DNA of 64,000 nucleotides. It comes from Bradyrhizobium quebecense. Lineage in GTDB: Bacteria > Pseudomonadota > Alphaproteobacteria > Rhizobiales > Xanthobacteraceae. Positions within the stretch are counted from its first letter, which is position 1; each line of letters starts with the position of its first letter. Under the pieces are notes generated by a model. The model was not told the DNA's origin. It ran no database searches and saw only the letters and a list, made by a program, of their open reading frames with translations. Location: contig NZ_CP088022.1 in assembly GCF_013373795.3 (NCBI RefSeq), positions 1,116,001-1,180,000 of the forward strand, written 5' to 3'. This document shows, one piece after another, positions 10,430 to 33,259 of the stretch. The position numbers and the translations under genes were made by a program.

Positions 10430-12181
10430 TCAGGTTCCGGTCCGTCGCAGGTCCTCGGCGGCATCGCTGCGCAAGTTGCGGAAGAACTGCTCGACCTCGC
10501 GCGACAGCGTCTCGGCGGTTGCGGTCAGATCGTTCGATGCCGCGAGCACCGATTCCGCAGCCTTGCTGGTCTGGTCCATGTCGTCGCGAAGCGAGCCGAC
10601 ATTCGTCACCAGGGTTTCGTTGCCCTGAGCGGCCATCTGTGCGTTGGCGGAGATTTCGCGCGTGGCTGCGTCCTGCTGGCCGATCGCGCTGGCGATGCTG
10701 GCGGTGACGTTGCTGATCTCGCGCACCGCCTGGCCGATCTCGCGCACGGCGGCCACCGAGTTGCGGGTCGAGGCCTGGATCAGGCCGACATTCTCGCTGA
10801 TCTCGGCGGTTGCCTTGGCGGTCTGCCCGGCCAGCGCCTTCACTTCGTGCGCAACGACCGCGAAGCCGCGGCCGGCGTCGCCGGCGCGGGCGGCTTCGAT
10901 GGTAGCGTTGAGCGCGAGCAGGTTGGTCTGCTCGGCGATCGCCTGGATCAGGTTCAGCACACCGTCGATGCGCTGCGTGGTGGCGGCAAGGCTCTCGATC
11001 TCGGTGATCGACCGGTCGGTGCGCGCACCTGCCTGATCGACCGCCCCCGACGACTGCTTGACCTGGCGGCCGATCTCCTCGACCGAGGCGGAGAGCTCTT
11101 CGGCTGCGCTTGCCACCGCAGACACGTTGCTCGAGGCCTGTTCGGTCGCACCTGCCGCCGCAACGGTCCGGCCGCTGGCGTCCGCCGCGACGGTTGCGAT
11201 GGTCTGCGCGGTTTGACGCATCGTAGCAGCGTTGTCGTGCACCGCGCGGAGCACCTCACCGATGGTGCCGCGGAATGTCTCGACGAAGCTTTCGATATGC
11301 CGGCCGCGGGCGTCGCGAGCCTCGGAGTCCTGCACGACTTGCGCGTTCAGGCTGCGATTGCGGTTCATCGCCTCCTGGAAGACCTTGATGGCGCGGGCCA
11401 GTGCGCCGATTTCGTCGCTGCGCCCGACATGCGGCACGTCGACATGGTCGGCGCCCTCGGCGACGTGCTTGATGGTCGTGGTGATCTGCGACAGTGGCCG
11501 CGCCACCGAGCGGGCGATGATCAGCACGCCGAGCACCACCACGATCAGGGCCGCCGCGCCGAGCCCGGTCAGCAGCAGCGCCAGCTCGCGGTTGGTGTCG
11601 GTCTGTTGTGCCAGCTTCTTGCTGCGCTCCGCGTAGACCTTTGACAGCGCCTCGAGGTCCTTGTTCAGTGCGGTGCGCACGTCGCGGTTGGCGTCGTTGT
11701 CGCCCCACTCACGCCCGGCAGCGGCGCCGATTTCGATGCCGCGGCGGACCAGCTCTTTCCGGAACTCGATGAATTGCTCGATGCGCTTCTTGAACACCGC
11801 GAACTGCGCGGCGTCGTCGGCCTGCACCAGGGTCTCCCAGTTCCTCACCACGCCTAGGATGCGGTCGTTGAACGCCAGCAGCCCGTCGCCGTATTTCTTC
11901 ACCGCCGGAGGTTCGGTCGACATGTAGATGCCGCGGGATTCCATCACCACCGCGTAAACCAGCGAGTTGACCCGCTCGACATTGAGCGCGGCGCGGCTTG
12001 CGAGGTCGACGGCCGCGGTCAGCTCGGCATTGCGCCGCGCGTTGTAGTCGGACAGGACGGTGATGGCTGCGGTCAGCGCCGCAATCAGCGCAAACGTCGA
12101 GTACAGCCTGGCAGCAAGCGAGAATCGGGATGCCATTGGAGGCCGGGATGTGGAGATGGGGGATGTGACGGGGGACGGCAT
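10430..12181 (-). CDS. Methyl-accepting chemotaxis protein
   Basis: The protein has 583 residues. I chose ATG 12181 because GGAG lies eight bases upstream; a TTG at 12220 has no ribosome binding site, and a Met 15 codons downstream (12136) is a weaker alternative. It has an N-terminal membrane segment ([18 protein letters not shown]), a helical periplasmic ligand-binding domain, a second membrane segment ([22 protein letters not shown]), HAMP, and a cytoplasmic signalling domain. The conserved hairpin tip reads [22 protein letters not shown]. No CheB/CheR-recruiting pentapeptide is visible at the C-terminus (RRTGT). It senses an unknown ligand and signals to a CheA complex encoded elsewhere. 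It is transcribed divergently from eutB across about 300 bases. Confidence 0.9.
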
Positions 12182-12484
12182 TGCGGGCACTCCAAGAGGC
12201 CGGGGAGTACCTTCGGCCAATCAAAGCTTATGCAAAATCTTCATGGACAATTTCTTAACGCGTGCGTTTCGTAGCGGTCGCAACCGTTAAAATCTCTAAA
12301 TAATACCAATGTCTTATGAGACACGCCGAGGCGGTCTGGTTCCCTCAGTCTGCCGCCGTGTTGAATGACGGACCGCCATCATCATCATTCATCAACATCC
12401 CCCGGCGCACCGGGAGAAGCTGATGGCACGACTTTCGCTAAGAGGTGCTAGGTTACGCCGTCCCCAGCCTCGACGCGAATCCCC
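12182..12484. other. Divergent intergenic region, chemoreceptor / eutB
   Basis: This 303-base stretch carries the promoters of two divergent genes. An AT-rich part (about 12230-12320, with TTTCTTAACG and AAATCTCTAAATAATACCAATG) is the likely chemoreceptor promoter zone. A GGCGGTC/GACCGCC inverted repeat near 12331-12391 and CCCCCGGCGCACCGGG near 12403 could fold in the eutB leader. I saw no GCCACTG box or other hallmark of a cobalamin riboswitch, although eutB and hpnP products depend on B12. No small gene was recognised. Confidence 0.4.
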
Positions 12485-13867
12485 ATGCTCTATCGTCACA
12501 CCATCGACGCCACCAATTATGCATTCGACGATCTGCGCATCCTGCTTGCCAAGGCCTCCCCGCCGCGGTCCGGCGACCGTTTGGCCGGCATCGCGGCCGA
12601 CAGCGCCGCGGAGATGATCGCCGCGCGGCTGGCGCTTGCCAACGTTCCGCTGAAGCAATTCCTCGATGAGCCGGTCATCCCCTATGAGGACGACGAAGTC
12701 ACCCGCCTGATCCTCGACAGCCACGACGTTGCCGGCTTCCTGCCGGTGTCGTCGCTCACCGTCGGCGGCTTCCGCGACTGGCTGCTGTCGGATGCCGCCA
12801 CTGGAGACGCGATCAACAGGATCTCGCGCGGCATCACGCCGGAGATGGTGGCGGCAGTGTCGAAGCTGATGCGCAACCAGGATCTGATCCTGGTCGCGAA
12901 GAAATGCGAGGTGACGACCCGCTTCCGCAACACCATCGGCTTGCGCGGGCGAATGAGCACGCGGCTGCAGCCGAACCATCCGTTCGACGATGCCAAGGGC
13001 ATCACCGCATCGATCCTCGACGGGCTGCTGCTCGGATCCGGCGACGCCTGCATCGGCATCAATCCGGCGAGCGACGATCCGAACGTCATCGGCACCCTGC
13101 TGCGGCTGCTGGACGACGTCATCACCCGGCTCGGGATTCCGACGCAAGGCTGCGTGCTGACCCATGTCACGACCACGCTCGGCCTGATCGGACAGGGGCT
13201 GCCGGTCGATCTCGTGTTCCAGTCGATCGCTGGCACCGAGGCGGCCAACCGCAGTTTCGGCGTCGACCTCTCGCTCCTCCGGGAGGCACGGGAAGCCGGG
13301 CTGTCGCTCCGCCGCAGCACGGTCGGCGACAATGTCATGTATTTCGAGACCGGGCAGGGCTCGGCCCTGTCGGCCAACGCCCATCACCAGGTCGACCAGC
13401 AGACCTGCGAGGCGCGGGCCTACGCGGTGGCGCGGGCGTTCGATCCGCTGCTCGTCAACAGCGTGGTCGGCTTCATCGGTCCCGAATACCTCTATGACGG
13501 CAAGGAAATCATCCGCGCCGGGCTCGAGGATCATTTCTGCGGCAAGCTGCTCGGCCTGCCGCTCGGGATCGACGTCTGCTACACCAACCACGCCGAGGCC
13601 GATCAGGACGACATGGACAATCTCCTGACGCTGCTTGCGGCCGCCGGCGTGAACTTCATCATGGGCGTGCCGGGCGCCGATGACGTGATGCTGAACTATC
13701 AGTCGACATCGTTTCACGATGCGCTCTACGTCCGCGACCTGTTCGGCCTGAAGCGGGCGCCCGAATTCGACGACTGGCTGGCGAGCGTGGGCCTTGCCGG
13801 GCAGGACTTCCGCCTCGTTGCCGATGCGGGGCAGCTGCCCGACCTCGCCGCCAGGCTCTTGACCTGA
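12485..13867 (+). CDS. eutB: Ethanolamine ammonia-lyase large subunit
   Basis: The protein has 460 residues, close to the usual 450-465. It starts MLYRHTIDATNYAFDDLRILLAKASPPRSGD and carries the TIM-barrel segments NTIGLRGRMSTRLQPNHPFDD, GDACIGINPASDD and FETGQGSALSANAHH, as expected for EutB. With EutC it forms the adenosylcobalamin enzyme that converts ethanolamine to acetaldehyde and ammonia in the cytoplasm. The small subunit gene is not next to it: hpnP (13996-15582) sits between eutB and eutC. No eut microcompartment shell genes or eutA reactivase lie nearby, so this looks like a catabolic eut system without a microcompartment. Confidence 0.95.
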   Translation: MLYRHTIDATNYAFDDLRILLAKASPPRSGDRLAGIAADSAAEMIAARLALANVPLKQFLDEPVIPYEDDEVTRLILDSHDVAGFLPVSSLTVGGFRDWLLSDAATGDAINRISRGITPEMVAAVSKLMRNQDLILVAKKCEVTTRFRNTIGLRGRMSTRLQPNHPFDDAKGITASILDGLLLGSGDACIGINPASDDPNVIGTLLRLLDDVITRLGIPTQGCVLTHVTTTLGLIGQGLPVDLVFQSIAGTEAANRSFGVDLSLLREAREAGLSLRRSTVGDNVMYFETGQGSALSANAHHQVDQQTCEARAYAVARAFDPLLVNSVVGFIGPEYLYDGKEIIRAGLEDHFCGKLLGLPLGIDVCYTNHAEADQDDMDNLLTLLAAAGVNFIMGVPGADDVMLNYQSTSFHDALYVRDLFGLKRAPEFDDWLASVGLAGQDFRLVADAGQLPDLAARLLT

Positions 13868-13904
13868 CGGGATAGCTAAATTCTGCAGAGCAACTATCTC
13901 ACCG

Positions 13905-13928
13905 TTGTGACGTTGGTAAGCGCCACAA
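13905..13928. promoter_or_regulatory. Inverted repeat between eutB and hpnP
   Basis: TTGTGACG at 13905-13912 and CGCCACAA at 13921-13928 form an 8-base inverted repeat with one mismatch and an 8-base spacer, about 70 bases upstream of hpnP. It may be a regulator site for hpnP. It has no T-tract, so it is a poor terminator. The binding protein is unknown. Confidence 0.3.
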
Positions 13929-13995
13929 TGTTGAAGAATTTCTGGCCCAGCGTTCCGCGCCGTGGTTAGATTTGCGGGTGCTTCGGGGTCGATTG

Positions 13996-15582
13996 ATGAG
14001 AGCTGAGGGCATAAAGACAGCACGGCGTATCCTCTGCGTCTTTCCGCGCTATACGTCGTCCTTTGGGACCTTCGAGCACGCCTACCCCCTGACCGACGGC
14101 GTCAAGGCGTTCATGCCGCCGCAGGGCTTGCTGCTGATCGCCGCATACCTCCCCGAGAACTGGCCGGTCCGTTTCGTCGACGAGAATCTGCGTCCGGCCA
14201 CGACGGAGGATTTCGAGTGGGCGGACGCGGTGTTCGTCAGCGGTATGCACATCCAGCGCCAGCAGATGAACGATATCTGCCGCCGCGCGCATGACCATGA
14301 TCTGGTGGTCGCGATCGGCGGCCCGTCGGTCAGTGCCTGTCCGGACTACTACCCCTCATTCGACTACCTTCATGTCGGCGAGCTCGGCGATGCGACGAAT
14401 GAGCTGATCAAGCGTCTGGAGCAGGACACCAGGCGTCCGGACGAGCAGGTGGTGCTCAAGACCATCGACCGCCTGCCGATGACGGATTTTCCGCTGCCGG
14501 CCTATGAGCTCGCCGAAACCAAGAAGTACTTCCTCGGGAGCATCCAGTTTTCCTCGGGCTGCCCCTATCAGTGCGAGTTCTGCGACATCCCCGGGCTCTA
14601 TGGCCGCAATCCGCGCCTGAAGTCGCCGCAGCAGATCATCGCCGAGCTCGACAAGCTGCGCGCCTGCGGCGCGACCGACACCGTCTATTTCGTCGACGAC
14701 AACTTCATCGGCAACCGCAAGGCGGCGAGCGAGCTACTGCCGCATCTGATCGAGTGGCAGAAGCGGACCGGCTATGTCACGCGCCTCGCGTGCGAGGCGA
14801 CGCTCAACATCGCCAAGCGGCCCGAGATCCTGGAGAAGATGCGCGAGGCCTTCTTCGTGACGATCTTCGTCGGCATCGAGACGCCCGATCCCGACGCGCT
14901 GAAGGCGATGCACAAGGATCAGAACATGATGGTTCCGATCCTGGAGGGCGTGCGCACCATCAACTCGTTCGGCATGGAGGTCGTCTCCGGCATCATCATG
15001 GGGCTCGATACCGACAAGCCCCAGACCGCTGACGCGCTGCTCTCGTTCGTCGAGGAGTCACGGATTCCGCTCCTCACCATCAACCTGCTGCAGGCGCTGC
15101 CGAAGACGCCGCTGTGGGATCGCCTCGAAAAGGCAGGAAGGCTGGTCCATGACGACGGCCGCGACTCCAATGTCGAGTTCCTGCTGCCCTACGAGGACGT
15201 GGTCAGTTCCTGGCGCAAATGCATGGAGATCGCCTACCAGCCCGAGAAGCTGTTCGAGCGCTACTTGCATCAATGCAACTACACCTATGCCAACCGCATC
15301 AAGCTGCCGGTCAGCCCGGAGATGAAGAGCTGGGCCAACATCCGGCGCGGCCTGATCATGCTTCGCAACATCTTCTGGAAGGTCGGCGTGCTCGGCGACT
15401 ACAAGCGCGTGTTCTGGAAGTTTGCGCTCGGCCGGCTCAAGCGTGGCGACATCGAGGGGCTGATCTCGGCGACGCTGGTTGCGCATCATCTGATCACGTT
15501 TGCGCGTGCAGCCTCCAGCGGCCGGCAGAACGCCTCGAACTACTCGATCCGGCTGCGCGAGGCTTCCGTACCCGCCGAATGA
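13996..15582 (+). CDS. hpnP: Hopanoid C-2 methylase (B12-binding radical SAM)
   Basis: The protein has 528 residues. I chose ATG 13996 ([24 protein letters not shown]); an upstream TTG at 13972 is unlikely. The N-terminal domain (about 10-150) resembles a B12-binding Rossmann domain. The radical SAM core has the 4Fe-4S motif Cys189-x3-Cys193-x2-Cys196 in [15 protein letters not shown], followed by [13 protein letters not shown]-terminal DUF4070-like region (from about 370) is typical of HpnP. The enzyme uses SAM and cobalamin to methylate C-2 of bacteriohopanepolyols, the source of 2-methylhopanes. It lies between eutB (128 bases upstream) and eutC (ATG 4 bases after its stop). Related B12 radical SAM enzymes with other substrates exist, but the N-terminus and nearby hpn genes favour HpnP. 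Confidence 0.85.
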
Positions 15583-15586
15583 CACC

Positions 15587-16381
15587 ATGACCACACCGCC
15601 GGCGCCATCGCCCCCGTCGCTTCCCGATTTTCGCGACCTCACGCCGGCGCGTGTCGGTCTCGGCCGGTCCGGAGCCAGCCTGCCGACTGATGCGCTGCTC
15701 TCGTTCACGCTCGACCACGCTCGGGCCCGCGACGCCGTTCACGCGGCCTTCGATGTCAGCGGCATTACGGCCGGTCTTGCCGGCCTTGGCATCACGCCGC
15801 ACGAGGTGTCGAGCCAGGCGCCCGGCCGGCGCGACTATCTGCGCCGGCCCGATCTCGGACGCATGCTGGACTCCGCATCGCGACGGTCGCTGGAGGGGTG
15901 CGGCATCACCGCATGCTCCTGCGCCCTCGTGATCGGGGACGGCCTGTCGCCGACCGCGGTCAATGTGCACGCCGTCGAATTGATCCGGCACCTCGTGCCG
16001 CGGCTTGCGGCCGACGGAGTCGACACTGGTGCGGTGATCGTCGCGTCAGGCGCGCGCGTCGCGCTCGGTGACGAGATCGGCGCCATCATCGGCGCGCGCA
16101 TGCTGGTGATGTTGATCGGCGAACGGCCCGGCCTGTCCGCGCCCGACAGCCTTGGCGCCTATCTCACCTTCGCGCCGCGGATCGGCCTCACCGATGCCGA
16201 CCGCAACTGCATCTCCAACATCCAGCGCGCCGGGCTGAGTTATCCGGAAGCCGCATTCAGGATCTCGTGGCTTGTGCGCGAGGGACTGGCACGCCGGGTG
16301 ACGGGGGTCGCGTTGAAAGATGAAAGCGGCGGTGGATCGTCACAGAATGCGCTACCGGGGTGTGACAAATCAGATACTTAA
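15587..16381 (+). CDS. eutC: Ethanolamine ammonia-lyase small subunit
   Basis: The protein has 264 residues. ATG 15587 comes 4 bases after the hpnP stop. It has the EutC segments [51 protein letters not shown] sequence (here [17 protein letters not shown]) and [20 protein letters not shown], plus [20 protein letters not shown]. The length is near the family norm of about 250-300. It binds the lower face of adenosylcobalamin in the EutBC complex. Its separation from eutB by hpnP is odd, since the subunits normally sit side by side. The close spacing implies that hpnP and eutC are on the same message. Confidence 0.94.
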
Positions 16382-16451
16382 TGGTGGGGATCAACGGTTC
16401 CCCGCGCATTTGATTCTACCCTCGCGCTTGCGAGCAAAGGGACGGACAGGT

Positions 16452-16483
16452 AAAACACGCGCCGGTCAATATTCGCGTGTTTT
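16452..16483 (+). terminator. Hairpin terminator after eutC
   Basis: AAAACACGCG at 16452-16461 pairs perfectly with CGCGTGTTTT at 16474-16483 over a 12-base loop; the 3' arm ends in TTTTC. It lies 70 bases after the eutC stop and before the RND exporter, so it plausibly separates the two units. The T-run is short, hence moderate confidence. Confidence 0.5.
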
Positions 16484-16578
16484 CAAGGACTAGCGCCGAT
16501 AAGCCGCGCTCACCCGCCTCATTCGCGCCCCTAGACCCAAGCTAGACAGATTGAGCCGTTTTCAGAACTGGACAGGGC

Positions 16579-18963
16579 ATGCTCGAAAAGAACTCCGAAA
16601 GTCAGGTCCACGTCGAGAAGGTCGAAGAGCCGCGGTCGGGCCCCAGCATCGCGTTCGGGATCGAGCGTCTCGGCCTGATCCCGATGCGGGCGCCGATCCT
16701 GTCCTGCATCGTGCTCGTCCTGTTGTTGATCGGCGCGGTGTTCGGCGTGCATCGGATCAAGATCGACGACTCGCTGTCGCAGCTGTTCCGTTCCGAATCC
16801 AAGGACTACAAGCAATATGAGGCGGTGACCAAGCGCTTCCCGGCGACCGAGTTCGACGTCCTCGTCGTGGTCGAAGGCAAGACGCTGCTCGAGCGCGACA
16901 ATCTCGGCAAGCTCCGTGACATGGTCACAGACCTGCAGCTCGTCGAGGGTGTGCGCGGTCTGGTGTCGCTGTTCTCCGCGCGCCAGGCGCCGGAGCCCGG
17001 CAAGCTGCCGGCGGCGCTGTTCCCCAATGAACTCCCCGAGGGCGCGGCCTACGACAAGTTCGTCGAGACCGTCAAAAGCAACGAAATCATCCGCGGCAAG
17101 CTGCTGTCGGAGGACGGCACGCTAGCGCTGGTCGTGCTGTCGCTCGAGCCGGAGGTGGTTGGCAGCAACAAGCTCAGCAAGGTGGTCGGCGACATCAGGA
17201 AGATCATGGCCGACGATCTCAGCGGCAGCGGGCTCAACGCCCAGCTGTCCGGCGTGCCGGTCATGCAGCTCGAGATCCGCAATGCGGTCGAGCGCGACGG
17301 CCTGACCTACAACATTCTCGGCATCCTCGCCGGCTGCGTCATCGCCATCATCTTCTTCCGCAAGATATCCTTCATGGTGGCGGCGGCGTTCCCGCCGATG
17401 ATCGCGATCCTGCTCGCGCTCGGCGGCCTCGGCTGGGCCAATTTCAATCTCAACATGTTCCTCAACGTGATGACGCCGCTCATCATGGTGATCAGCTTCT
17501 CCGACTCGATGCAGCTGACATTCGCGGCGCGCGACCGGCTGATCGCGGGCCAGGACAAGTTCACCGCATTCAAGAACGCGGTGCTGGTGGTCGGCCCGGC
17601 CTGCGTGCTGACGCACGGCACGGCGGGCATTTCGTTCATCGCGCTACAGTTCTCGGATTCCGATCTGATCCGCAAATTCGGCGAGGCCGGGCTTGCGGCG
17701 ACCATCATCGCGCTGGTCGCGGTGCTGTCGCTGGTGCCGGTGTTCGGCATCCTGCTGGTGCGCAACGAGAAGGTCTTTGCGGTCAAGTTCCAGAGCGCGG
17801 ACGCCGGGGTGCAGGCGCTGCGCAATTTCTGCTACTGGATCGCGGTGCGGATGGTCGGCCGTCCCGGGCTGTTCAGCCTGCTCGCGCTGATCGTCGTCGG
17901 CGGCCTCGGCATCATCTACGCCAATCTCGAGCCGCGCTACCGGCTCGCCGACCAGGTGCCGGACAAGCGGCAGGCGGTGGAGGCGTCGAGCCGGCTCGAC
18001 GCCAAGCTGACCGGCGCCAATCCAGTCGATGTGCTGATCGAATTCCCCAAGGGCCAATCGCTCTACTCGCCGGAGACGCTGAAGACGATCGCCGACGTTC
18101 ACGCGATGGTCGAGGACAGCGCCGGCGTCGGCAACGTCTGGTCGCTGGAAACCCTGCGGCGCTGGCTCGCCGAGAAGGCCGGCAGCAACGATGTCGCGAC
18201 GCTGAAGGAATATGTCAGCGTGATTCCCGAGCATCTCGTGCGCCGCTTCATCTCGAAGGATCAGGATGCCGTCGTGGTGTCGGGCCGCGTCCCGGATCTC
18301 GATTCGAGCCAGTTGCTTCCGGTGGTGAACAAGCTCGATCATTCGCTGGACAAGGTCCGCGCGGAGCATCCCGGCTACGAGATCGCGGTGACCGGCCTGT
18401 CGGTGATTGCCGCGCGCAACAGCGCCAACATGATCGAGAAGCTCAACCGCGGCCTCACCGTGGAGTTCGCGCTGGTCGCGATCTTCATCGGGCTCGCGTT
18501 CCGCTCGGTCGTGGTGATGTTCTCCTGCATCCTGCCCGGTATCTTCCCGGTGGTGCTGTCAGGCACGGTGCTGTGGCTGCTCGGGGAGGGGCTGCAATTC
18601 GCCAGCGTCGTGGCGTTGACCGTGTCGTTCGGCCTCGGCCTCAGCGCCACCATCCACTTCCTCAATCGCCTGCGGCTGGAGACCAAGCCCGGTGTCACGC
18701 CGGAGCTTGCGGTGGAGCGCGCCACGGTGCTGGTCGGCCCGGCGCTGATCCTGACTACGGTGGTGCTGGCCTGCGGCCTCGTCGTCACCGTGTTCTCCGA
18801 CCTGCCGTCGCTGCGGCTGTTCGGCTGGCTCAGCGCGTTCTCGATGGTCGCGGCCTTGGTCGCGGACCTCTTCATCCTGCGGCCGACCTCGATGTTCCTG
18901 ATCAACCTGTCGCAAAGGCTCCGCGGCAAGGGCGGGCAACCGGCGCCGATCGAGAAGGCTTGA
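16579..18963 (+). CDS. RND/MMPL-family exporter, HpnN-like
   Basis: The protein has 794 residues. The architecture is that of a short RND exporter: a first membrane helix (APILSCIVLVLLLIGAVFGV, residues 36-55), a periplasmic loop starting DSLSQLFRSESKDYKQYE, a block of membrane helices from about 235 to 430 including FLNVMTPLIMVISFSDSMQLTF, then a second loop and helix block (about 620-775). No outer-membrane or adaptor partners are adjacent, as is usual for the hydrophobe-exporter branch that includes HpnN. It lies just after eutB-hpnP-eutC and before the hpnC operon, so a lipid or hopanoid substrate is plausible but unproven. It ends in a strong terminator. Confidence 0.85.
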   Translation: MLEKNSESQVHVEKVEEPRSGPSIAFGIERLGLIPMRAPILSCIVLVLLLIGAVFGVHRIKIDDSLSQLFRSESKDYKQYEAVTKRFPATEFDVLVVVEGKTLLERDNLGKLRDMVTDLQLVEGVRGLVSLFSARQAPEPGKLPAALFPNELPEGAAYDKFVETVKSNEIIRGKLLSEDGTLALVVLSLEPEVVGSNKLSKVVGDIRKIMADDLSGSGLNAQLSGVPVMQLEIRNAVERDGLTYNILGILAGCVIAIIFFRKISFMVAAAFPPMIAILLALGGLGWANFNLNMFLNVMTPLIMVISFSDSMQLTFAARDRLIAGQDKFTAFKNAVLVVGPACVLTHGTAGISFIALQFSDSDLIRKFGEAGLAATIIALVAVLSLVPVFGILLVRNEKVFAVKFQSADAGVQALRNFCYWIAVRMVGRPGLFSLLALIVVGGLGIIYANLEPRYRLADQVPDKRQAVEASSRLDAKLTGANPVDVLIEFPKGQSLYSPETLKTIADVHAMVEDSAGVGNVWSLETLRRWLAEKAGSNDVATLKEYVSVIPEHLVRRFISKDQDAVVVSGRVPDLDSSQLLPVVNKLDHSLDKVRAEHPGYEIAVTGLSVIAARNSANMIEKLNRGLTVEFALVAIFIGLAFRSVVVMFSCILPGIFPVVLSGTVLWLLGEGLQFASVVALTVSFGLGLSATIHFLNRLRLETKPGVTPELAVERATVLVGPALILTTVVLACGLVVTVFSDLPSLRLFGWLSAFSMVAALVADLFILRPTSMFLINLSQRLRGKGGQPAPIEKA

Positions 18964-18979
18964 TTGATCGAAAACAAAA

Positions 18980-19015
18980 GGCCCGGTTCCGAAGCGTTCG
19001 GAACCGGGCCTTTTT
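18980..19015 (+). terminator. Strong rho-independent terminator
   Basis: A perfect 14-base stem (18980-18993 with 18997-19010, GGCCCGGTTCCGAA paired across a GCG loop) is followed by TTTTT at 19011-19015. It lies 17 bases after the RND exporter stop. The secreted protein gene at 19043 converges on it; there is no matching T-run in the other direction apart from a short CTTTTG. Confidence 0.9.
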
Positions 19016-19042
19016 ATTGGCCGGCGAAATCGGTCGGGAATG

Positions 19043-19546
19043 TCAGGTCTTCGTCATCGTGATCGTGACGCCGCGGATCTCGCCCTTGGAGTCGATCTGC
19101 ACCACCTGCTTGGAGCCGTTGGTCTGCAGGTTCAGGTTTGCCGCAAAGCCGGACGCCTCGACAAACACGTCGATCCGGCCGCCGCCCGCGGTGCCCTGCA
19201 AATTGCCGAAGATGTTGCGGCTTGCCTCGCTCCAGTTGCCGGAGATCCGGTCGCCCTGGCTGGTGACGTCGCTGGAAAGGTCGAACTTGTAGCTGTCGCT
19301 CGCGCAATGCAGCGATTGCTTCAGGTTCATGCCCGATGGCGCGACCTTGTAATCCGCCTTGCAACGAATGCGTTCGGTCGTGCCGTTGGACAACGCCACC
19401 GTGCCCGTTCCGGTCCACGAGCCGGCAAAACCGGCAAATGGACCATTGGCCTGGGCATGGACTGCGGAGGCGGACAGCATCAGTGCGGCGCCGACGCCCA
19501 CAGCTCTGAGGGCCTGACCATAAGGGCTGGAACCAAACAGTTTCAT
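19043..19546 (-). CDS. Secreted protein of unknown function
   Basis: The product has 167 residues from ATG 19546, with GATGGGAA about ten bases upstream; in-frame starts at 19561 and 19570 would add 5 or 8 residues and have no better ribosome site. A signal peptide is clear (VGVGAALMLSASAVHAQ). The mature part begins FAGFAGSWTGTGTVALSNGTTERIRCKADY and is rich in beta-strand-like sequence with three cysteines. The start resembles lipocalin-like proteins that open with a GxW-x-G-x-G motif. It likely lies in the periplasm. I cannot assign a function. It converges on the RND exporter terminator. Confidence 0.65.
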   Translation of the reverse strand: MKLFGSSPYGQALRAVGVGAALMLSASAVHAQANGPFAGFAGSWTGTGTVALSNGTTERIRCKADYKVAPSGMNLKQSLHCASDSYKFDLSSDVTSQGDRISGNWSEASRNIFGNLQGTAGGGRIDVFVEASGFAANLNLQTNGSKQVVQIDSKGEIRGVTITMTKT

Positions 19547-19951
19547 TGTGAATTTTCCCATCAAAATCAACGCCTCTTTCGCAAGAAAGCGTCTCGCCGC
19601 GTCGAAGGTTTAGTGTCACCCAAGAATGTTAGGTTCAAACGACAGAAGCTGCGCGCGCGAGCCCTGTTGTCAACGAACAGAATCAGAAACCGTTGCCCTC
19701 TTGATGGCATCTAGCTTTGCGCGAGTGCGATCCGCAATACCCAAACGCGACAAAGTGATGGCATGAATCGTTGTTGTGAATCAATAGCTTAGGCGGGGGT
19801 TTACAGCGCCGCAAATTTAGCCGCATTTAGCAGTGCTTGTCGTCAATCCGTTGCCGCGTTACGTGGCGTCTGCAATCCCCAAAATCCGTCCCGGCCATGC
19901 CGAAACGCGTTTCGGGAACAGATTTTCTGCTGTCGGAAATGAAGGAATACG
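19547..19951. other. Intergenic region with a 16-base perfect palindrome
   Basis: This 405-base stretch separates two divergent small secreted-protein genes. It contains the perfect palindrome CCGAAACGCGTTTCGG at 19900-19915, about 37 bases upstream of the plus-strand gene, which could be an operator. GAAATGAAGGAATACG at 19937-19952 supplies the ribosome binding site of that gene. I see no convincing additional gene. Confidence 0.4.
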
Positions 19952-20191
19952 ATGCGTAAATTTCTCCTGGCTGTTGCCCTGTTGTCGATCCCGCTCTCGT
20001 CCAGCGCCTTCGCCCAGCAGCAAGGGCGCGGCGGTACGCCCGATGAGCAGAAGGCCTGCACGCGCGACGTGCAGCGTCACTGCCGCTCCGTCATCGATCA
20101 GGGCGATTTCACCATTCTCGCCTGCCTGCAGCAGAACCGCAGCAAGATCAGCGCCGCCTGCGACCAGGTGCTGAAGACCCACGGCCAATAA
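19952..20191 (+). CDS. Small secreted cysteine-rich-repeat protein
   Basis: The product has 79 residues and a signal peptide (MRKFLLAVALLSIPLSSSAFAQ). The mature part, about 57 residues, has the spacing C-x7-C ... C-x10-C seen in cysteine-rich-repeat (GLG1-like) small proteins: ACTRDVQRHCRSVIDQGDF, then LACLQQNRSKISAACDQVL. Four cysteines suggest two disulfides in the periplasm. Such proteins are common in Bradyrhizobium, with no known activity. An AAGGA about 8 bases upstream supports the start. It precedes the hpnC operon by about 200 bases and is probably transcribed separately. Confidence 0.7.
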   Translation: MRKFLLAVALLSIPLSSSAFAQQQGRGGTPDEQKACTRDVQRHCRSVIDQGDFTILACLQQNRSKISAACDQVLKTHGQ

Positions 20192-20387
20192 GACCGAATT
20201 CAGGTCTCAAGGGACCGCTATCGACACCGCGGCTGGCAGCCATGCCGGCCGCGGCTACGTATGCTGGCGGTCACAGATAGCATTGGTTTTGGTGGCGTAT
20301 TCCCCTATATGGGGCTCGCAAATCCCCCGCATGCGCCTGACCGTCCGCGCCTGCGTCGTGCCATGACCAGTGTAGCCCAAATTTCCC

Positions 20388-21266
20388 ATGACCACCGCGA
20401 GCGACCTGCGATCCGGAAAGACCCACCGCGACGAGAATTTTCCGGTCGCGTCGTGGATCATTCATCCGCGGCATCGTGCCCTGATCCTGGCCTTCTATAA
20501 TTTCGTCCGCACCGCCGACGATATCGCCGATCACGGCACGCTGCCGGCCGAGGAGAAGCTGCGCTATCTCGACCTCATGGAGGCCGAGCTGCTCGGCAAT
20601 GGCGATAGCCAGAAGGAAGCGGTCAGCCTGCGCCGCGCCTTCGCCGAGCGCGGCATGCCGCCGCGGCATGCGCTCGACGTGCTGGTGGCGTTCCGCCTCG
20701 ACGTCACCAAGCTGCGCTACGAAAACTGGGACGACGTGATCGATTATTGCCGTTACTCGGCAATGCCGGTCGGGCGCTTCATGCTCGACGTGCATGGCGA
20801 GGATATTTCGACCTGGGCGGCGTCGGATGCGCTCTGCGCCGCATTGCAGATCAACAACCATCTGCAGGACTGCGGCAAGGACTACCGGAATCTGAACCGC
20901 GTCTATCTGCCGCGCGATGCGCTGGCCGCTACGGGTGCGACCGTCGAGATGCTCGGCGAGGCGAAATCGCAGCCGGCCCTGCTCAAATGCCTGCAGGCGC
21001 TCGCGCTGCGCACCGCGGCGCTGCTCGACCAGAGCAAGTCGCTCGCCGCCGAAGTGAAGGATTTCCGGCTCGGGCTCGAGATCTCGGTGATCCAGGCGTT
21101 CGCCGACAAGATCGTCAACCTGCTGAAGGTGCGCGACCCGCTCAGCGAGCGCGTGCATCTGAGCCCGGTCGAATTGCTGTTGCAGAGCCTTGGCGGCGTC
21201 GCCGGCGAGACCGCGCGGCGGGCGATCGGACGGCGTGCGGTCTCCAAGACGGCGGCAGGGGCATGA
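20388..21266 (+). CDS. hpnC: Hydroxysqualene synthase HpnC
   Basis: The protein has 292 residues and the all-alpha trans-isoprenyl fold. The first aspartate-rich motif reads RTADDIADHG and the second NNHLQDCGKDYRNLNRVYLPRD. HpnC hydrolyses presqualene diphosphate to hydroxysqualene, the middle step of the HpnCDE route to squalene. It is the first gene of a tightly packed operon; its stop overlaps the hpnD start as ATGA. The ATG at 20388 is preceded by TTTCCC and no obvious Shine-Dalgarno sequence. The 196 bases upstream hold a GC-rich hairpin (20227-20254, 12-base stem, one G-T pair) without a T-run. Confidence 0.93.
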   Translation: MTTASDLRSGKTHRDENFPVASWIIHPRHRALILAFYNFVRTADDIADHGTLPAEEKLRYLDLMEAELLGNGDSQKEAVSLRRAFAERGMPPRHALDVLVAFRLDVTKLRYENWDDVIDYCRYSAMPVGRFMLDVHGEDISTWAASDALCAALQINNHLQDCGKDYRNLNRVYLPRDALAATGATVEMLGEAKSQPALLKCLQALALRTAALLDQSKSLAAEVKDFRLGLEISVIQAFADKIVNLLKVRDPLSERVHLSPVELLLQSLGGVAGETARRAIGRRAVSKTAAGA

Positions 21267-22099
21267 GTGCTGAGGCGGCGGCCAACGCAAATTACGGAAG
21301 CACCGCGTCGGGCAGCTCGTTCTATGCCGCGATGCGCATCCTGCCGCACGCGCAGCGCGAGGCGATGTTCCAGATCTACAGCTTCTGCCGGCAGGTCGAC
21401 GACATCGCCGATTCCGATGGTCCGCGGCCGGAGCGCCTGGCGGCCTTGCAGCAGTGGCGCGACGATATCGACGCGCTGTATGCGGGGCACCCGCCGGAGC
21501 GGCTGAAAGACTATGTCGGGTCGGTGAAGGCCTTCGGCCTGAAGCGCGAGGATTTCGTCGCGATCGTCGACGGCATGGAGATGGACGTGCCGCAGGACAT
21601 CCGCGCGCCGGATCTTGCGACGCTCGACCTGTATTGCGATCGCGTCGCGAGCGCGGTCGGCCGGCTGTCGGTGCGCGTGTTCGGGCTGCCCGAGGAAGAC
21701 GGCATCCAACTCGCCTACCATCTCGGCCGCGCGCTGCAGCTCACCAACATCCTGCGCGACATCGACGAGGATGCCGGTCTCGGCCGGCTCTATCTGCCGC
21801 GCGAATGGCTCTGGCATGCCGGCATCACCAACAACGACCCGGCCCGCGTCACTGCCGACCGCGCGCTACCGAAAGTCTGCGCGCCGCTTGCCGAGCGCGC
21901 CAAGATGCACTTCCAGAAGTCCGACGAGATCATGAAGCGCAATTCGCGCCGCGCCGTGCGCGCGCCGCGGATCATGTCGAAATACTACCGCGCGATCCTC
22001 GATCTTTTAATCGCGCGCGGCTTCGCCGCTCCGCGTGAGCCGGTGCGTGTGTCCAAGGCCGCCAAGATCGGCATTCTTCTTCGTTACGCGATCATCTGA
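21263..22099 (+). CDS. hpnD: Presqualene diphosphate synthase HpnD
   Basis: The protein has 278 residues. ATG 21263 overlaps the hpnC stop by four bases. The two Mg-binding motifs are QVDDIADSDG and NILRDIDEDAGLGRLYLPRE, and SFYAAMRILP matches the N-terminal diphosphate-binding helix of this family. It condenses two farnesyl diphosphates to presqualene diphosphate. Its stop overlaps the hpnE ATG by one base (TGATG). It is a paralogue of HpnC; the order hpnC-hpnD and the conserved second motif fix which is which. Confidence 0.94.
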   Translation: MSAEAAANANYGSTASGSSFYAAMRILPHAQREAMFQIYSFCRQVDDIADSDGPRPERLAALQQWRDDIDALYAGHPPERLKDYVGSVKAFGLKREDFVAIVDGMEMDVPQDIRAPDLATLDLYCDRVASAVGRLSVRVFGLPEEDGIQLAYHLGRALQLTNILRDIDEDAGLGRLYLPREWLWHAGITNNDPARVTADRALPKVCAPLAERAKMHFQKSDEIMKRNSRRAVRAPRIMSKYYRAILDLLIARGFAAPREPVRVSKAAKIGILLRYAII

Positions 22100-23349
22100 T
22101 GCAAAAGACCGTTCATATCATCGGTGCCGGTATTTCCGGCCTCTCCGCGGCCGTGCGGCTCGCCAATGGCGGCTACAAGGTTGCCGTCCACGAGGCGACG
22201 CAGCAGGCCGGTGGCCGCTGCCGCTCTTATTTCGACGCCGCCACCAATCTCACCATCGACAACGGCAACCATCTGCTGCTGTCGGGCAACCGCCATGCGC
22301 TGAGCTACGCGCGTTCGATCGGCACCGAGGCGGGTCTCGTGGGACCTGCGCGCGCGCAGTTTCCGTTCGTCGACCTGGCCTCCGGCCAGCGCTGGCAGCT
22401 CGACCTCGGCGATTCCCGCCTGCCGCTGTGGGTGTTCGACGAGGCGCGCCGCGTCCCGGACACCAGCCTGCGCGATTATCTCGCATTGGCGCCGCTGGCC
22501 TGGGCCGGCACCGAGGCGCTGGTCGGCAACACGATTCCCTGCAAGGGCACGCTGTATGACCGCCTGGTGCAGCCGCTGCTGCTCGCCGCACTGAACGTCG
22601 ATCCGCCGGAGGGCTCGGCCGGGCTTGCCGGCGCCATCGTGCGCGAGACGCTGCTCGCCGGCGGGCAGGCCTGCCGTCCGCTGATCGCGCGCGACGGCCT
22701 GAGCTCGGTACTGATCGAGCCGGCCGTGAAGCTGCTGCAGGAGCGGGGCCATAGCGTCCAGTTCAGTCACGAATTGCGTACGCTTGGCATGTCGGGTGAT
22801 CGCATCAGCGAGCTCGACTTCGGCGGTGGCGACAAGATCACGCTGGCCGCCGACGATGCCGTCGTGCTCGCGGTGCCGCCGCGCGCCGCGGCAACGCTGC
22901 TGCCCGGCCTGAAAACCCCGACCAAATTCCGCGCCATTGTGAATGCGCATTTCCGCGTCGATCCGCCGCGCGACGCCGCGCCCATTCTCGGCGTGGTCGG
23001 CGGCCTCGTGGAATGGCTGTTCGCATTCCCGCAGCGGCTGTCGGTGACGATCAGCAACGGCGACCGCCTGGTCGACATGCCGCGCGAGGAGCTCGCGCAG
23101 GCGATCTGGCGGGACATCTGCAAGGCATCCGGCGTTTCCGGCGACTTGCCGCCGTGGCAGATCGTGCGCGAGCGCCGCGCCACATTTGAGGCGACGCCGG
23201 AGCAGAACGCCCTGCGTCCGGGGCCCACGACGGCGCAAAAAAACCTGTTCCTTGCCGGCGACTGGACTGCTACCGGGTTGCCGGCAACCATCGAGGGGTC
23301 GGTGCGGTCGGGTGATCGCGCCGCAGATCTGGTTCTGGCCAGGCGTTAA
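22099..23349 (+). CDS. hpnE: Squalene-forming FAD-dependent oxidoreductase HpnE
   Basis: The protein has 416 residues. The N-terminal dinucleotide-binding motif is IIGAGISGLSAAVRLANGG, followed by HEATQQAGGRC, as in the phytoene desaturase-like amine oxidase superfamily. A C-terminal FLAGDWTATGLPATIEGSVRSG matches the second FAD-binding element. HpnE reduces hydroxysqualene to squalene and completes the HpnCDE pathway. It overlaps hpnD by one base and is followed 45 bases later by shc. Confidence 0.94.
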   Translation: MQKTVHIIGAGISGLSAAVRLANGGYKVAVHEATQQAGGRCRSYFDAATNLTIDNGNHLLLSGNRHALSYARSIGTEAGLVGPARAQFPFVDLASGQRWQLDLGDSRLPLWVFDEARRVPDTSLRDYLALAPLAWAGTEALVGNTIPCKGTLYDRLVQPLLLAALNVDPPEGSAGLAGAIVRETLLAGGQACRPLIARDGLSSVLIEPAVKLLQERGHSVQFSHELRTLGMSGDRISELDFGGGDKITLAADDAVVLAVPPRAAATLLPGLKTPTKFRAIVNAHFRVDPPRDAAPILGVVGGLVEWLFAFPQRLSVTISNGDRLVDMPREELAQAIWRDICKASGVSGDLPPWQIVRERRATFEATPEQNALRPGPTTAQKNLFLAGDWTATGLPATIEGSVRSGDRAADLVLARR

Positions 23350-23394
23350 ATTCGACCTGTTAAGCGGCCGCGGCTTTCGATCAGCCGGTCCGCA

Positions 23395-25377
23395 ATGAAG
23401 AGGATATCGAGCGAAATGCTTTCGAGAGATCACGGCGTCGCAGTCGATCCGGTCGCGCTGGAGAAGAGCATCTCCAAGGCAACCGAAGCGCTGCTCGGCT
23501 ATCGCCAGTCCGACGGGCACTGGATATTCGAGCTCGAGGCCGACAGCACCATTCCGGCCGAGTACATCCTGCTGCGTCACTACCTGGCCGAGCCCGTCGA
23601 CGCCGCGCTCGAGGCCAAGCTCGGCAACTATCTGCGTCGCGTCCAGGGCGCGCATGGCGGCTGGCCGCTGGTGCATGACGGCCCGTTCGACATGAGCGCC
23701 AGCGTGAAGTCGTACTTCGCGCTGAAGATGATCGGCGATTCCGTCGACGCGCCGCACATGGTGCGGGCGCGCGAGGCGATCCGTTCGCGCGGCGGGGCTT
23801 CGGGCAGCAACGTGTTCACGCGCTTCCTGCTTGCGCTTTATGGCGTCGTGACCTGGCGCGCGACGCCGGTACTGCCGATCGAGATCATGCTGCTGCCGAT
23901 GTGGTCGCCGTTCCACATCAACAAGATCTCCTACTGGGCGCGCACCACCATGGTGCCGCTGATGGTGCTCGCTGCGCTGAAGCCGCGCGCCAAGAATCCG
24001 AAGGGCGTCGGCATCGACGAACTGTTCCTGGAAGATCCGAAGTCGGTCCGCATGGCGCCGAAGGCGCCGCATCAGAGCGCGAGCTGGTTCTATCTGTTCC
24101 GCTCGCTCGACGCCGTGCTGCGCGTGATCGAGCCGATGTTTCCGAAGCGCCTGCGCCAGCGCGCGATCGACGCCGCGCTCGCCTTCACCGAAGAGCGGTT
24201 GAACGGCGAAGACGGCATGGGCGCGATCTATCCGCCGATGGCCAACATCGTCATGATGTATGAGGCGCTCGGCAAGGACGAGAGTTTCCCGCCGCGCGCC
24301 GTCACCCGCCGCGGCATCGACAAGCTGCTGGTGGTCGGCGAGCACGAGGCCTATTGCCAACCCTGCGTCTCGCCGGTGTGGGACACCGCGCTGACCTGTC
24401 ATGCGTTGCAGGAAGCGGGCGGCGACGACACGCTCGCCAAGGCCAAGCAGGGGCTCGACTGGCTGAAGCCACGCCAGGTGCTGGAGCTGAAGGGCGACTG
24501 GGCGGTCAAGGCGCCGGACGTCCGTCCCGGTGGCTGGGCGTTCCAGTACAACAACGATCACTATCCTGATCTCGACGACACTGCCGTGGTCGTGATGGCG
24601 ATGGACCGCGTGCGGCGCCATAGCGGAACCAGGGAATATGACGAGGCGATCGCGCGCGGCCGCGAGTGGATCGAGGGGCTGCAGAGCCGCGACGGCGGCT
24701 GGGCGGCGTTCGACGTCAACAACCTCGAATATTACCTCAACAACATCCCGTTCTCCGATCACGGAGCCTTGCTCGATCCGCCGACCGAGGATGTCACCGC
24801 GCGCTGCATCTCGATGCTGGGCCAGCTCGGCGAGACCGCCGAGAGCAACAAGGCGATGGCCGACGGTATCGCCTATCTGCGCCGCACCCAGCTCGCCGAG
24901 GGCTCCTGGTACGGCCGCTGGGGCCTGAATTACGTCTACGGCACGTGGTCGGTGCTCTCCGCGCTAAATGTCGCAGGGATCGATCGCAACGACCCGATGA
25001 TTCGGAAAGCGGTCGATTGGCTGGCGTCAGTCCAGAATCAGGACGGCGGCTGGGGCGAGGACGCCGTCAGTTACCGGCTGGATTACAAGGGTTATGAAGT
25101 TGCGCCGTCGACCTCCTCGCAAACGGCATGGGCCTTGCTTGGATTGATGGCGGCCGGAGAGGTCGAAAATCCCGCCGTTGCGCGGGGGGTGGAGTACCTA
25201 AAGGCAACACAGACGGAAAAAGGGCTGTGGGACGAGCAGCGATACACAGCTACGGGGTTTCCGCGGGTATTTTACTTGCGATATCATGGCTACTCGAAGT
25301 TCTTTCCGCTCTGGGCGCTGGCGCGGTATCGAAATTTGAGAAGCACCAATAGCAGGGTGGTAGGGGTCGGGATGTGA
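23395..25377 (+). CDS. shc: Squalene-hopene cyclase
   Basis: The protein has 660 residues (also called hpnF). The catalytic DXDD motif is Asp392-Leu-Asp394-Asp395 in HYPDLDDTAVV, and QW repeats are visible (QSRDGGWAAF, QNQDGGWGE, EGSWYGRWG). It is a monotopic membrane protein that cyclises squalene to hopene and diplopterol. ATG 23395 lacks a clear ribosome site; ATG 23416, preceded by AAGAGGA, is an alternative that would shorten the protein by seven residues. The stop overlaps the hpnG GTG by four bases. Confidence 0.96.
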   Translation: MKRISSEMLSRDHGVAVDPVALEKSISKATEALLGYRQSDGHWIFELEADSTIPAEYILLRHYLAEPVDAALEAKLGNYLRRVQGAHGGWPLVHDGPFDMSASVKSYFALKMIGDSVDAPHMVRAREAIRSRGGASGSNVFTRFLLALYGVVTWRATPVLPIEIMLLPMWSPFHINKISYWARTTMVPLMVLAALKPRAKNPKGVGIDELFLEDPKSVRMAPKAPHQSASWFYLFRSLDAVLRVIEPMFPKRLRQRAIDAALAFTEERLNGEDGMGAIYPPMANIVMMYEALGKDESFPPRAVTRRGIDKLLVVGEHEAYCQPCVSPVWDTALTCHALQEAGGDDTLAKAKQGLDWLKPRQVLELKGDWAVKAPDVRPGGWAFQYNNDHYPDLDDTAVVVMAMDRVRRHSGTREYDEAIARGREWIEGLQSRDGGWAAFDVNNLEYYLNNIPFSDHGALLDPPTEDVTARCISMLGQLGETAESNKAMADGIAYLRRTQLAEGSWYGRWGLNYVYGTWSVLSALNVAGIDRNDPMIRKAVDWLASVQNQDGGWGEDAVSYRLDYKGYEVAPSTSSQTAWALLGLMAAGEVENPAVARGVEYLKATQTEKGLWDEQRYTATGFPRVFYLRYHGYSKFFPLWALARYRNLRSTNSRVVGVGM

Positions 25378-32806: not shown

Positions 32807-33259
32807 AGGTCGTCCGTTACGCAAATTGCACCAATCTCATTCCATGCCCTGCGGCCAGTTCGGCGACGCACTCCACGCGGTCGGACGCCGCAACTTCCAT
32901 TGCAATGTCCGCACCATCTCAGGTCCTGCACGTGATCCGCGCCCTCAAGGGCATGGAAATACAGGGATTTGTGGCAAAAAGGTAGCGCTTCGAGCGGATG
33001 AGTAGCCAGTCAAGTGAGGCGGTTGAGGTAATATGGTATGGATTTTGGGCCCTGTGACCCTCCGTCTCCCTCACTTGTTCGTCACTTTATCGCCCACTCC
33101 TGCGGTCTATACCGGCCACTCGTGGCCGTTCCTGTGCTTTGGAACCTCCTCACCATCTCGTCGAGGAAGATAACCAAAACAACATTAGATCGGTCCCGGG
33201 AACTCCGCTACAGAGCGGGCGTTTTCGGCCATGCTTCCCCGAGATTAGAAAGAAACGAA
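32807..33259. other. Divergent intergenic region, ispH / hpnN
   Basis: This 453-base stretch serves ispH-hpnH leftward and hpnN rightward. The open frame of hpnN continues upstream to about 33038, but that part has no hopanoid transporter similarity, no signal peptide and contains a promoter-like site at 33199, so I treat it as non-coding. No other gene was recognised. Confidence 0.45.
33199..33223 (+). promoter_or_regulatory. EcfG-like general stress promoter upstream of hpnN
   Basis: GGAAC at 33199-33203 and CGTT at 33220-33223 are 16 bases apart, matching the alphaproteobacterial EcfG (general stress ECF sigma) consensus GGAAC-N16/17-CGTT. Initiation would fall near 33230, about 30 bases before the hpnN GTG. 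Published work on Rhodopseudomonas palustris links EcfG to hopanoid methylation, so stress control of hopanoid export would be reasonable. The call rests on nine bases at the right spacing and position. Confidence 0.5.

What the first reader, a model, noticed from the sequence alone, without database searches (positions are those of the whole stretch)
12485..16381. hpnP lies between the two subunit genes of ethanolamine ammonia-lyase
eutB (12485-13867) and eutC (15587-16381) encode one enzyme and are normally adjacent. Here the C-2 hopanoid methylase gene separates them, with only 4 bases between hpnP and eutC. Both proteins need cobalamin, and ethanolamine is a membrane-lipid head group, so the three genes may form a B12-dependent lipid-linked unit. 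The layout is seen directly; the functional link is inference.
Basis: partly seen in the sequence, partly recalled or inferred. Interest (0 to 1): 0.7.

Follow-up and report, generated by a model that had tools for sequence, protein, structure and literature searches.

The report
Ethanolamine lyase operon split by hpnP
In Bradyrhizobium and its relatives the two genes for one vitamin-B12 enzyme (ethanolamine ammonia-lyase) have long been kept apart by a third gene that methylates membrane hopanoids; this looks like one old insertion that became locked in, not proof that the two enzymes work together.

Summary
The layout is real. eutB (12485-13867), hpnP (13996-15582) and eutC (15587-16381) are intact, co-directional genes, with 4 bp between hpnP and eutC. 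It is not a quirk of one strain: eutB lies upstream of hpnP in 79 of 80 Bradyrhizobium-type loci. It recurs in related genera (of 60 fetched loci 29 have both eut genes, 31 neither, none only one). Split EutB and split EutC each form one group set apart from contiguous pairs; the HpnP tree needs 6 changes, read as 1 gain and 5 losses. So hpnP probably entered an ordinary eutB-eutC pair once. In 25 of 28 split genomes searched, the split pair is the only EutB; catalytic residues and purifying selection are kept. The losses seen remove both eut genes and spare hpnP (BRP22 keeps eut remnants on both sides). hpnP has its own conserved promoter region inside the split, an EcfG-type site in 31 of 37 non-Bradyrhizobium loci. 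eutC is coupled to hpnP (129 of 157 gaps from -4 to +10 bp). Best reading: evolutionary lock-in, with eutC riding on hpnP's transcript. A B12/lipid functional unit is unproven.

The parts
12485..13867 (+). eutB, ethanolamine ammonia-lyase large subunit (460 aa)
   Evidence: aligns to 3abo_A over residues 5-449; R160, Q162, N193, E288, F330, D363 match the active-site residues recalled for the E. coli enzyme
13868..13995 (+). eutB-hpnP gap (128 bp), holding hpnP's own upstream region
   Evidence: sequence; conserved across relatives
13922..13950 (+). conserved block GCCACAATNTTGARRAATTTSTRGCCCAG upstream of hpnP
   Evidence: core found in 119 of 142 Bradyrhizobium and 17 of 37 other loci, 0 of 24 far loci; one copy in the 9.17 Mb genome at up to 3 mismatches
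13963..13971 (+). TGg-TTAGAT, possible extended -10 element at fixed spacing behind the block
   Evidence: read; inference, the promoter scan did not list it
13996..15582 (+). hpnP, hopanoid C-2 methylase (B12-binding, radical SAM, DUF4070; 528 aa)
   Evidence: CxxxCxxC motif seen in the translation
15587..16381 (+). eutC, ethanolamine ammonia-lyase small subunit (264 aa)
   Evidence: aligns to 3any_B over residues 12-242
16384..16405 (+). terminator-like hairpin just after eutC
   Evidence: weak, 2 such sites found where shuffles give 2.7
16579..18963 (+). MMPL/HAE3-type RND transporter, downstream neighbour (not HpnN)
   Evidence: HpnN model TIGR03480 63.7 bits, cut-off 751.85
10430..12220 (-). 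methyl-accepting chemotaxis protein, divergent neighbour of eutB

Best explanation
hpnP, carrying its own promoter, inserted once between eutB and eutC of an ordinary eutBC pair in an ancestor of Bradyrhizobium, Rhodopseudomonas-type genera (name inferred) and their kin. The EutB and EutC proteins still form a normal ethanolamine ammonia-lyase. eutB is read from upstream. hpnP is read from the promoter region in the eutB-hpnP gap: a general-stress (EcfG-type) site in most of the other genera sampled, another conserved block in Bradyrhizobium. eutC has almost no leader of its own and is made from the hpnP transcript, or by read-through from eutB, coupled to the end of hpnP. The order persists because eutC now depends on transcription through hpnP and only an exact excision would restore the old pair (lock-in), not because methylated hopanoids and ethanolamine breakdown form one pathway. 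Shown: layout, conservation, one split group in each subunit tree, joint absence of eutB and eutC with hpnP kept, conserved hpnP-side elements. Inferred: direction of change, transcripts, promoter activity and the reason for persistence.
For: Split EutB is one side of a branch (SH-aLRT 100) and so is split EutC (99); 49 split and 25 contiguous rows. HpnP tree: 6 changes over 102 rows, 62 split, 40 none. Among 60 fetched loci 29 have both eut genes, 31 neither, 0 one. BRP22 (L033) keeps eutB and eutC remnants around intact hpnP and has another eutB elsewhere. Bradyrhizobium genomes G710, G744, G667 and G752 lack eut at hpnP and have contiguous eutBC elsewhere. Split pair is the only EutB in 25 of 28 split genomes. 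dN/dS 0.04-0.27 in 11 pairs for all three genes. EcfG-type site 31 of 37 (expected 0.36), in 16 of 20 eut+ and 15 of 17 eut- loci; none within 200 bp upstream of eutC (0 of 20) or the RND gene (0 of 28) in those genera, or of contiguous eutB (0 of 23). hpnP-eutC gap -4 to +10 bp in 129 of 157 loci.
Against: No transcript data. The block and the extended -10 in Bradyrhizobium have no known factor; the EcfG consensus is recalled. Long persistence over many species could also mean a selected link. Loci were mostly fetched through hpnP, so eutBC that had lost hpnP inside the clade would be under-sampled; within Bradyrhizobium 264 of 265 genomes have hpnP, and the one miss has eutB cut at a contig end. 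The trees were quick ones; deep branches of the HpnP and EutB trees are weakly supported, and the subunit trees were rooted on one very distant row (L225), so the direction contiguous-to-split rests partly on general knowledge. The window's own genome is one more split genome with a second eutBC, which makes its split copy dispensable in principle.
Confidence: 0.72

Rival explanations
1. The three genes are a selected B12-dependent lipid-linked unit: ethanolamine from phospholipid turnover is broken down while hopanoids are 2-methylated, with shared control by stress or B12 supply.
For: Order kept over many species and genera; hpnP-eutC coupling; both enzymes use B12 (domains; B12 dependence of HpnP from passages).
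Against: hpnP lives without eut in 40 of 102 rows; the losses seen spare hpnP; the hpnP promoter region is kept in eut-less genomes; contiguous eutBC in G000 sits with choline/ethanolamine-kinase-like genes, not hopanoid genes; no riboswitch in the window.
Confidence: 0.15
2. EutB or EutC at this locus has a new role, for example serving HpnP, and no longer acts as an ethanolamine ammonia-lyase.
For: EutC has the highest dN/dS of the three in 10 of 11 pairs; G000 and three of the 28 split genomes searched also hold a second eutBC.
Against: Active-site residues kept; the subunits are absent together; it is the only EutB in 25 of 28 split genomes.
Confidence: 0.06
3. The split pair is decaying and the order is neutral debris.
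For: eutB in pieces in G572 and in draft loci L008, L049 and L133; an in-frame stop near the end of eutB in L082.
Against: Low dN/dS; eutB matched over at least 90% in one stop-free piece in 73 of 78 named loci holding both genes (two of the five misses are cut by contig ends); only EutB copy in most split genomes.
Confidence: 0.04

Closest known systems
Contiguous eutB-eutC of the same bacterial family (L202-L224 and the genome's own L005)
   Same: Same two subunit families, same order and strand.
   Different: Subunit genes overlap or nearly touch there (commonest value -4 bp, 15 of 25); here a 1.6 kb gene and a promoter region lie between them.
hpnP of Rhodopseudomonas palustris TIE-1, under EcfG (Kulkarni et al. 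2013, title seen in reference lists; paper not held)
   Same: Same gene; the fetched loci of a group I take to be Rhodopseudomonas (g165; name inferred) show the split order and an EcfG-type site.
   Different: Bradyrhizobium lacks the EcfG-type site (1 of 142, expected 1.0) and carries another conserved block.
Standalone hpnP of the groups I take to be Afipia and Nitrobacter (g177, g160; names inferred)
   Same: Same HpnP clade, beside the same RND gene, most with hpnC near, EcfG-type site.
   Different: Both eut genes are absent there, save for one g160 genome (G549, L145), which has the split order.

Membership tests
Ethanolamine ammonia-lyase (EutBC) | EutB family over curated cut-off, full length | tested here: met
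Ethanolamine ammonia-lyase (EutBC) | EutC family over curated cut-off | tested here: met
Ethanolamine ammonia-lyase (EutBC) | catalytic residues (recalled E. coli positions R160, Q162, N193, E287, F329, D362) | tested here: met
   placed by the alignment; a seventh position tried, 257, is S here
Ethanolamine ammonia-lyase (EutBC) | adjacent subunit genes | tested here: not met
   hpnP between them; a usual but not enzyme-defining trait
Ethanolamine ammonia-lyase (EutBC) | AdoCbl-dependent deamination of ethanolamine | not testable with these tools
   needs assay
HpnP hopanoid C-2 methylase | B12-binding + radical SAM + DUF4070 domains | tested here: met
   definition from a passage of PMC10697835, which says HpnP-like proteins share it
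HpnP hopanoid C-2 methylase | close to proteins named so; hopanoid genes in genome | tested here: met
   hpnC, hpnD, hpnE, shc, hpnG, hpnH and hpnN in the window (hpnD given as a part, 272.9 bits under its cut-off of 278.6)
HpnP hopanoid C-2 methylase | makes 2-methylhopanoids | not testable with these tools
   needs lipid analysis
EcfG (general stress) regulon | GGAAC-N16-18-GTT upstream (recalled consensus) | tested here: not met
   absent in the window and in 141 of 142 Bradyrhizobium loci; present in 31 of 37 loci of other genera
B12-controlled unit | cobalamin riboswitch | tested here: not met
   no Rfam match in the window at gathering scores

The most novel reading that the evidence does not exclude
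By splitting eutBC, hpnP put the small subunit of a B12 lyase under a membrane-stress promoter, so that ethanolamine breakdown can only be completed when hopanoid methylation is also switched on: a built-in AND gate that links phospholipid head-group recycling, hopanoid methylation and B12 demand.
Probability: 0.15. Interest if true: 0.7.

Novelty: new variant of a known kind. Interest (0 to 1): 0.42.

Why it matters
2-Methylhopanes are a much-used molecular fossil, and hpnP mutants of Rhodopseudomonas and Bradyrhizobium are a main test of what they do. If eutC is made from the hpnP transcript, disruptions of hpnP may also cripple ethanolamine use, and EcfG induction of hpnP would raise EutC too. 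The split also gives a clean case of a two-subunit enzyme whose genes have stayed separated by an unrelated gene for a long time, with repeated joint losses as natural experiments.

Tried and rejected
Cobalamin riboswitch: no Rfam match in the window. Leader peptide in the conserved block: in the window the block can be read as a short frame (M-L-K-N-F-W-P-S...), but a number of relatives have a stop in that frame (TTGTAG), so I dropped it. Regulon of the block: one match in the genome at up to 3 mismatches. Sigma-70 consensus promoters: none on the + strand in 12150-16650. Horizontal transfer of the split pair into the L185/L187 lineages, hinted at by the quick EutB tree: trees with the other split rows held together were likelier, p-AU 0.738 (EutB) and 0.761 (EutC), so vertical descent is kept. 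A plasmid source of hpnP: the best plasmid relative is 58% identical (Methylobacterium), not pursued. My label 'hpnN' for 16579-18963 in scripts was wrong. The first block pattern used a wrong base class; redone.

Papers: no held paper with hpnP and 'ethanolamine ammonia', or hpnP and eutB. Listings only: three with Bradyrhizobium and ethanolamine ammonia-lyase, six with 2-methylhopanoid and cobalamin (two of them, PMC10697835 and PMC12583986, also seen as passages), one with hopanoid and ethanolamine ammonia-lyase, on Zymomonas. PMC3542024: one legend passage. Passages only: PMC12583986, PMC11005386, PMC4337730, PMC10697835. This is a search of open-licence papers only; the EcfG-hpnP paper is not held.

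Limits of counts: the 142 Bradyrhizobium rows and the 157 rows include some genomes twice; the 24 far loci include L102, the same genome as L186 of the near set. eutC starts were picked by rule (in one search the one nearest the eutB stop, which leans to short gaps). Rows L145 and L159 were left out of the EutB/EutC trees (partial or broken). L015 and L040 (eutC side) and L032, L055 and L085 (eutB side) are cut by contig ends.
Full report
OBSERVATION. The subunits pass the curated EutB and EutC cut-offs of NCBIfam and Pfam and align to solved ethanolamine ammonia-lyases. Six recalled catalytic residues of the E. coli enzyme are present. The middle protein has the B12-binding, radical SAM and DUF4070 domains, and some close homologues are named hopanoid C-2 methylase by their sources. 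I used codon 2 (13999) as the start in tool queries, so distances to hpnP are 3 bp too long.

SETTING. The window lies in a 9.17 Mb genome whose HpnP is 98% identical to that of named Bradyrhizobium records. hpnP sits at the edge of the hopanoid cluster: an RND transporter, hpnC, hpnD, hpnE, squalene-hopene cyclase, hpnG, and further on hpnH and hpnN. The genome has a second, contiguous eutBC at C1:1846647-1848732, beside choline/ethanolamine-kinase-like genes.

CONSERVATION. Of 80 loci found through HpnP in named genomes (307 stretches encoded a relative; the best 80 were kept), eutB lies upstream of hpnP on the same strand in 79 and eutC downstream in 78. L015 ends with its contig on the eutC side. 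L033 (Bradyrhizobium sp. BRP22) lacks both genes. L032, L055 and L085 hold part of eutB and L040 part of eutC at contig ends. hpnP is present in 264 of 265 Bradyrhizobium genomes; the miss, G864, has a eutB cut at a contig end, so its hpnP may simply be unassembled. In the family 227 of 391 genomes have hpnP. I fetched the surroundings of 60 of them, 47 outside Bradyrhizobium: 29 have both eut genes flanking hpnP, 31 have neither, none has one. By the tool's group codes the split order occurs in g1 (Bradyrhizobium), g3, g146, g165 and g182, in one fetched g157 genome, one of g5 and one of g160.

ORIGIN. On the HpnP tree (102 rows: 62 split, 40 none) the state needs at least 6 changes, which I read as one gain and five losses. 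Eight of the 40 'none' rows were seen with only 1.5 kb on each side, and L149 and L196 also have a short flank. In the EutB and EutC trees (74 rows) the 49 split rows form one side of a branch, with SH-aLRT 100 and 99, and the 25 contiguous rows the other. These are quick trees rooted on one very distant row (L225). In 15 of 25 contiguous pairs the genes overlap by 4 bp, taking the eutC start nearest the eutB stop. So an ordinary pair was probably opened once. The quick EutB tree put L185 and L187 within the split clade near Bradyrhizobium, against the HpnP tree; holding the other split rows together gave likelier trees for both subunits, so no transfer is needed.

FUNCTION OF THE SPLIT PAIR. 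I searched 80 family genomes with the EutB and EutC families: 47 have EutB and 48 EutC, the extra one being a 49-bit partial match. In 25 of the 28 split genomes among them the split locus is the only EutB, and EutC gives the same picture. The three exceptions are G236, G602 and G572; in G572 the split eutB is in two pieces. The window's own genome is a further split genome with a second pair. All three genes are under purifying selection in 11 pairs (dN/dS 0.04-0.27; EutC highest in 10 of 11). Of 78 named loci with both genes, eutB is matched over at least 90% in one stop-free piece in 73, eutC in 72. The misses are contig ends (L032, L055, L040), broken or stop-bearing drafts (L008, L049, L082), and four eutC matches with a stop 8 to 12 residues before the end of the match, probably the natural end. 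This argues for a working enzyme made from separated genes.

SEPARABILITY. hpnP does not follow the eut genes. In BRP22 remnants of eutB and of the eutC end remain on the two sides of an intact hpnP, so the pair was lost by deletions that spared hpnP; that genome has a eutB elsewhere (eutC was not searched there). In Bradyrhizobium genomes G710, G744, G667 and G752 the pair is gone from hpnP, and a contiguous pair of another lineage is present. Both genes are gone in g160 (4 of 5 fetched genomes) and g177 (4 of 4), among others. eutB and eutC thus behave as partners of each other, hpnP as a lodger. Sampling went mostly through hpnP, so the reverse loss would be seen less well.

CONTROL REGION. 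The gap between eutB and hpnP carries hpnP's own region. An EcfG-type site (GGAAC-N16-18-GTT, consensus recalled) occurs within 200 bp upstream of hpnP in 31 of 37 near loci outside Bradyrhizobium (expected 0.36), in 16 of 20 with eut and 15 of 17 without. It occurs in 1 of 142 Bradyrhizobium loci (expected 1.0) and in 2 of 24 far loci, one of which (L102) repeats a genome of the near set. It occurs in none of 23 contiguous eutB, and of 28 RND-gene and 20 eutC upstream regions in the near genera. Upstream of split eutB it occurs in 1 of 94 Bradyrhizobium loci and 1 of 20 others, the latter (L145) an artefact of a partial contig. EcfG control of hpnP in R. palustris TIE-1 is known (title in reference lists; paper not held). 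A second element, a block followed at fixed spacing by TGN-TTARAT, has its core in 119 of 142 Bradyrhizobium loci (BRP22 among them), 17 of 37 others (4 of them eut-less) and 0 of 24 far ones; 1 of 94 upstream of eutB. It is missing in the eut-less G710/G744/G667/G752 group. It occurs once in the genome. I read it as an hpnP promoter or operator; its factor is unknown.

COUPLING. The hpnP-eutC gap is between -4 and +10 bp in 129 of 157 loci (two undetermined; starts picked by rule), so in these eutC has no room for a promoter of its own outside hpnP. eutC is therefore probably made with hpnP. A few loci have wider gaps (L154 297 bp, L175 420 bp, L185 110 bp), so tight coupling is usual, not universal. 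A terminator-like hairpin follows eutC (16384-16405), no better than chance in number.

MECHANISM. One insertion of hpnP with its promoter, then lock-in: losing hpnP with its promoter risks losing eutC expression, and exact restoration is rare (none seen in these samples). The price is that the small subunit of a B12 lyase is read with a stress-controlled lipid gene. Whether this is useful is open. A link of ethanolamine breakdown to hopanoid methylation is possible, but most tests here point to independence. In B. diazoefficiens an hpnP mutant has no symbiotic or osmotic phenotype (passages of PMC11005386); the passages I saw do not say whether eutC was affected.

LITERATURE. No held paper joins hpnP with 'ethanolamine ammonia' or eutB. 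The word ethanolamine does not occur in the main text of PMC12583986, PMC11005386, PMC4337730 or PMC10697835 (term counts). Most subscription papers were not searchable, so the layout may have been noted there.

The recount bore out the locus counts; one number was mended (contiguous 4 bp overlaps: 15 of 25, not 16).

Noticed in passing
L225:5200-7330 (G414:C6): EutB and EutC in one open frame (749 aa by the search tool): a natural fused ethanolamine ammonia-lyase, distant (41% and 30%) from the window's subunits; the genome also has a normal contiguous pair.
   Followed up: partly
window 13996-25377: hpnP lies 7.8 kb from squalene-hopene cyclase, and hpnC lies in the fetched stretch of 65 of 80 named loci, while PMC10697835 states that no cyclase-HpnP synteny was seen in any phylum (passage).
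   Followed up: partly
window 13922-13971: Strongly conserved element upstream of hpnP with no known factor; it may stand in for the EcfG-type site that Bradyrhizobium lacks, though some other genera have both.
   Followed up: partly
window 16579-18963: RND transporter between eutC and hpnC weakly resembles HpnN but is not HpnN; the true HpnN is at 33038-35875.
   Followed up: partly
window 10430-12220; L143, L144, L156, L161: A chemoreceptor gene neighbours eutB: divergent in most Bradyrhizobium loci, a different co-directional one in several other genera; perhaps ethanolamine taxis.
   Followed up: no
G000:C1:1846647-1848732 (L005): Second, contiguous eutBC of another lineage beside choline/ethanolamine-kinase-like genes.
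   Followed up: partly
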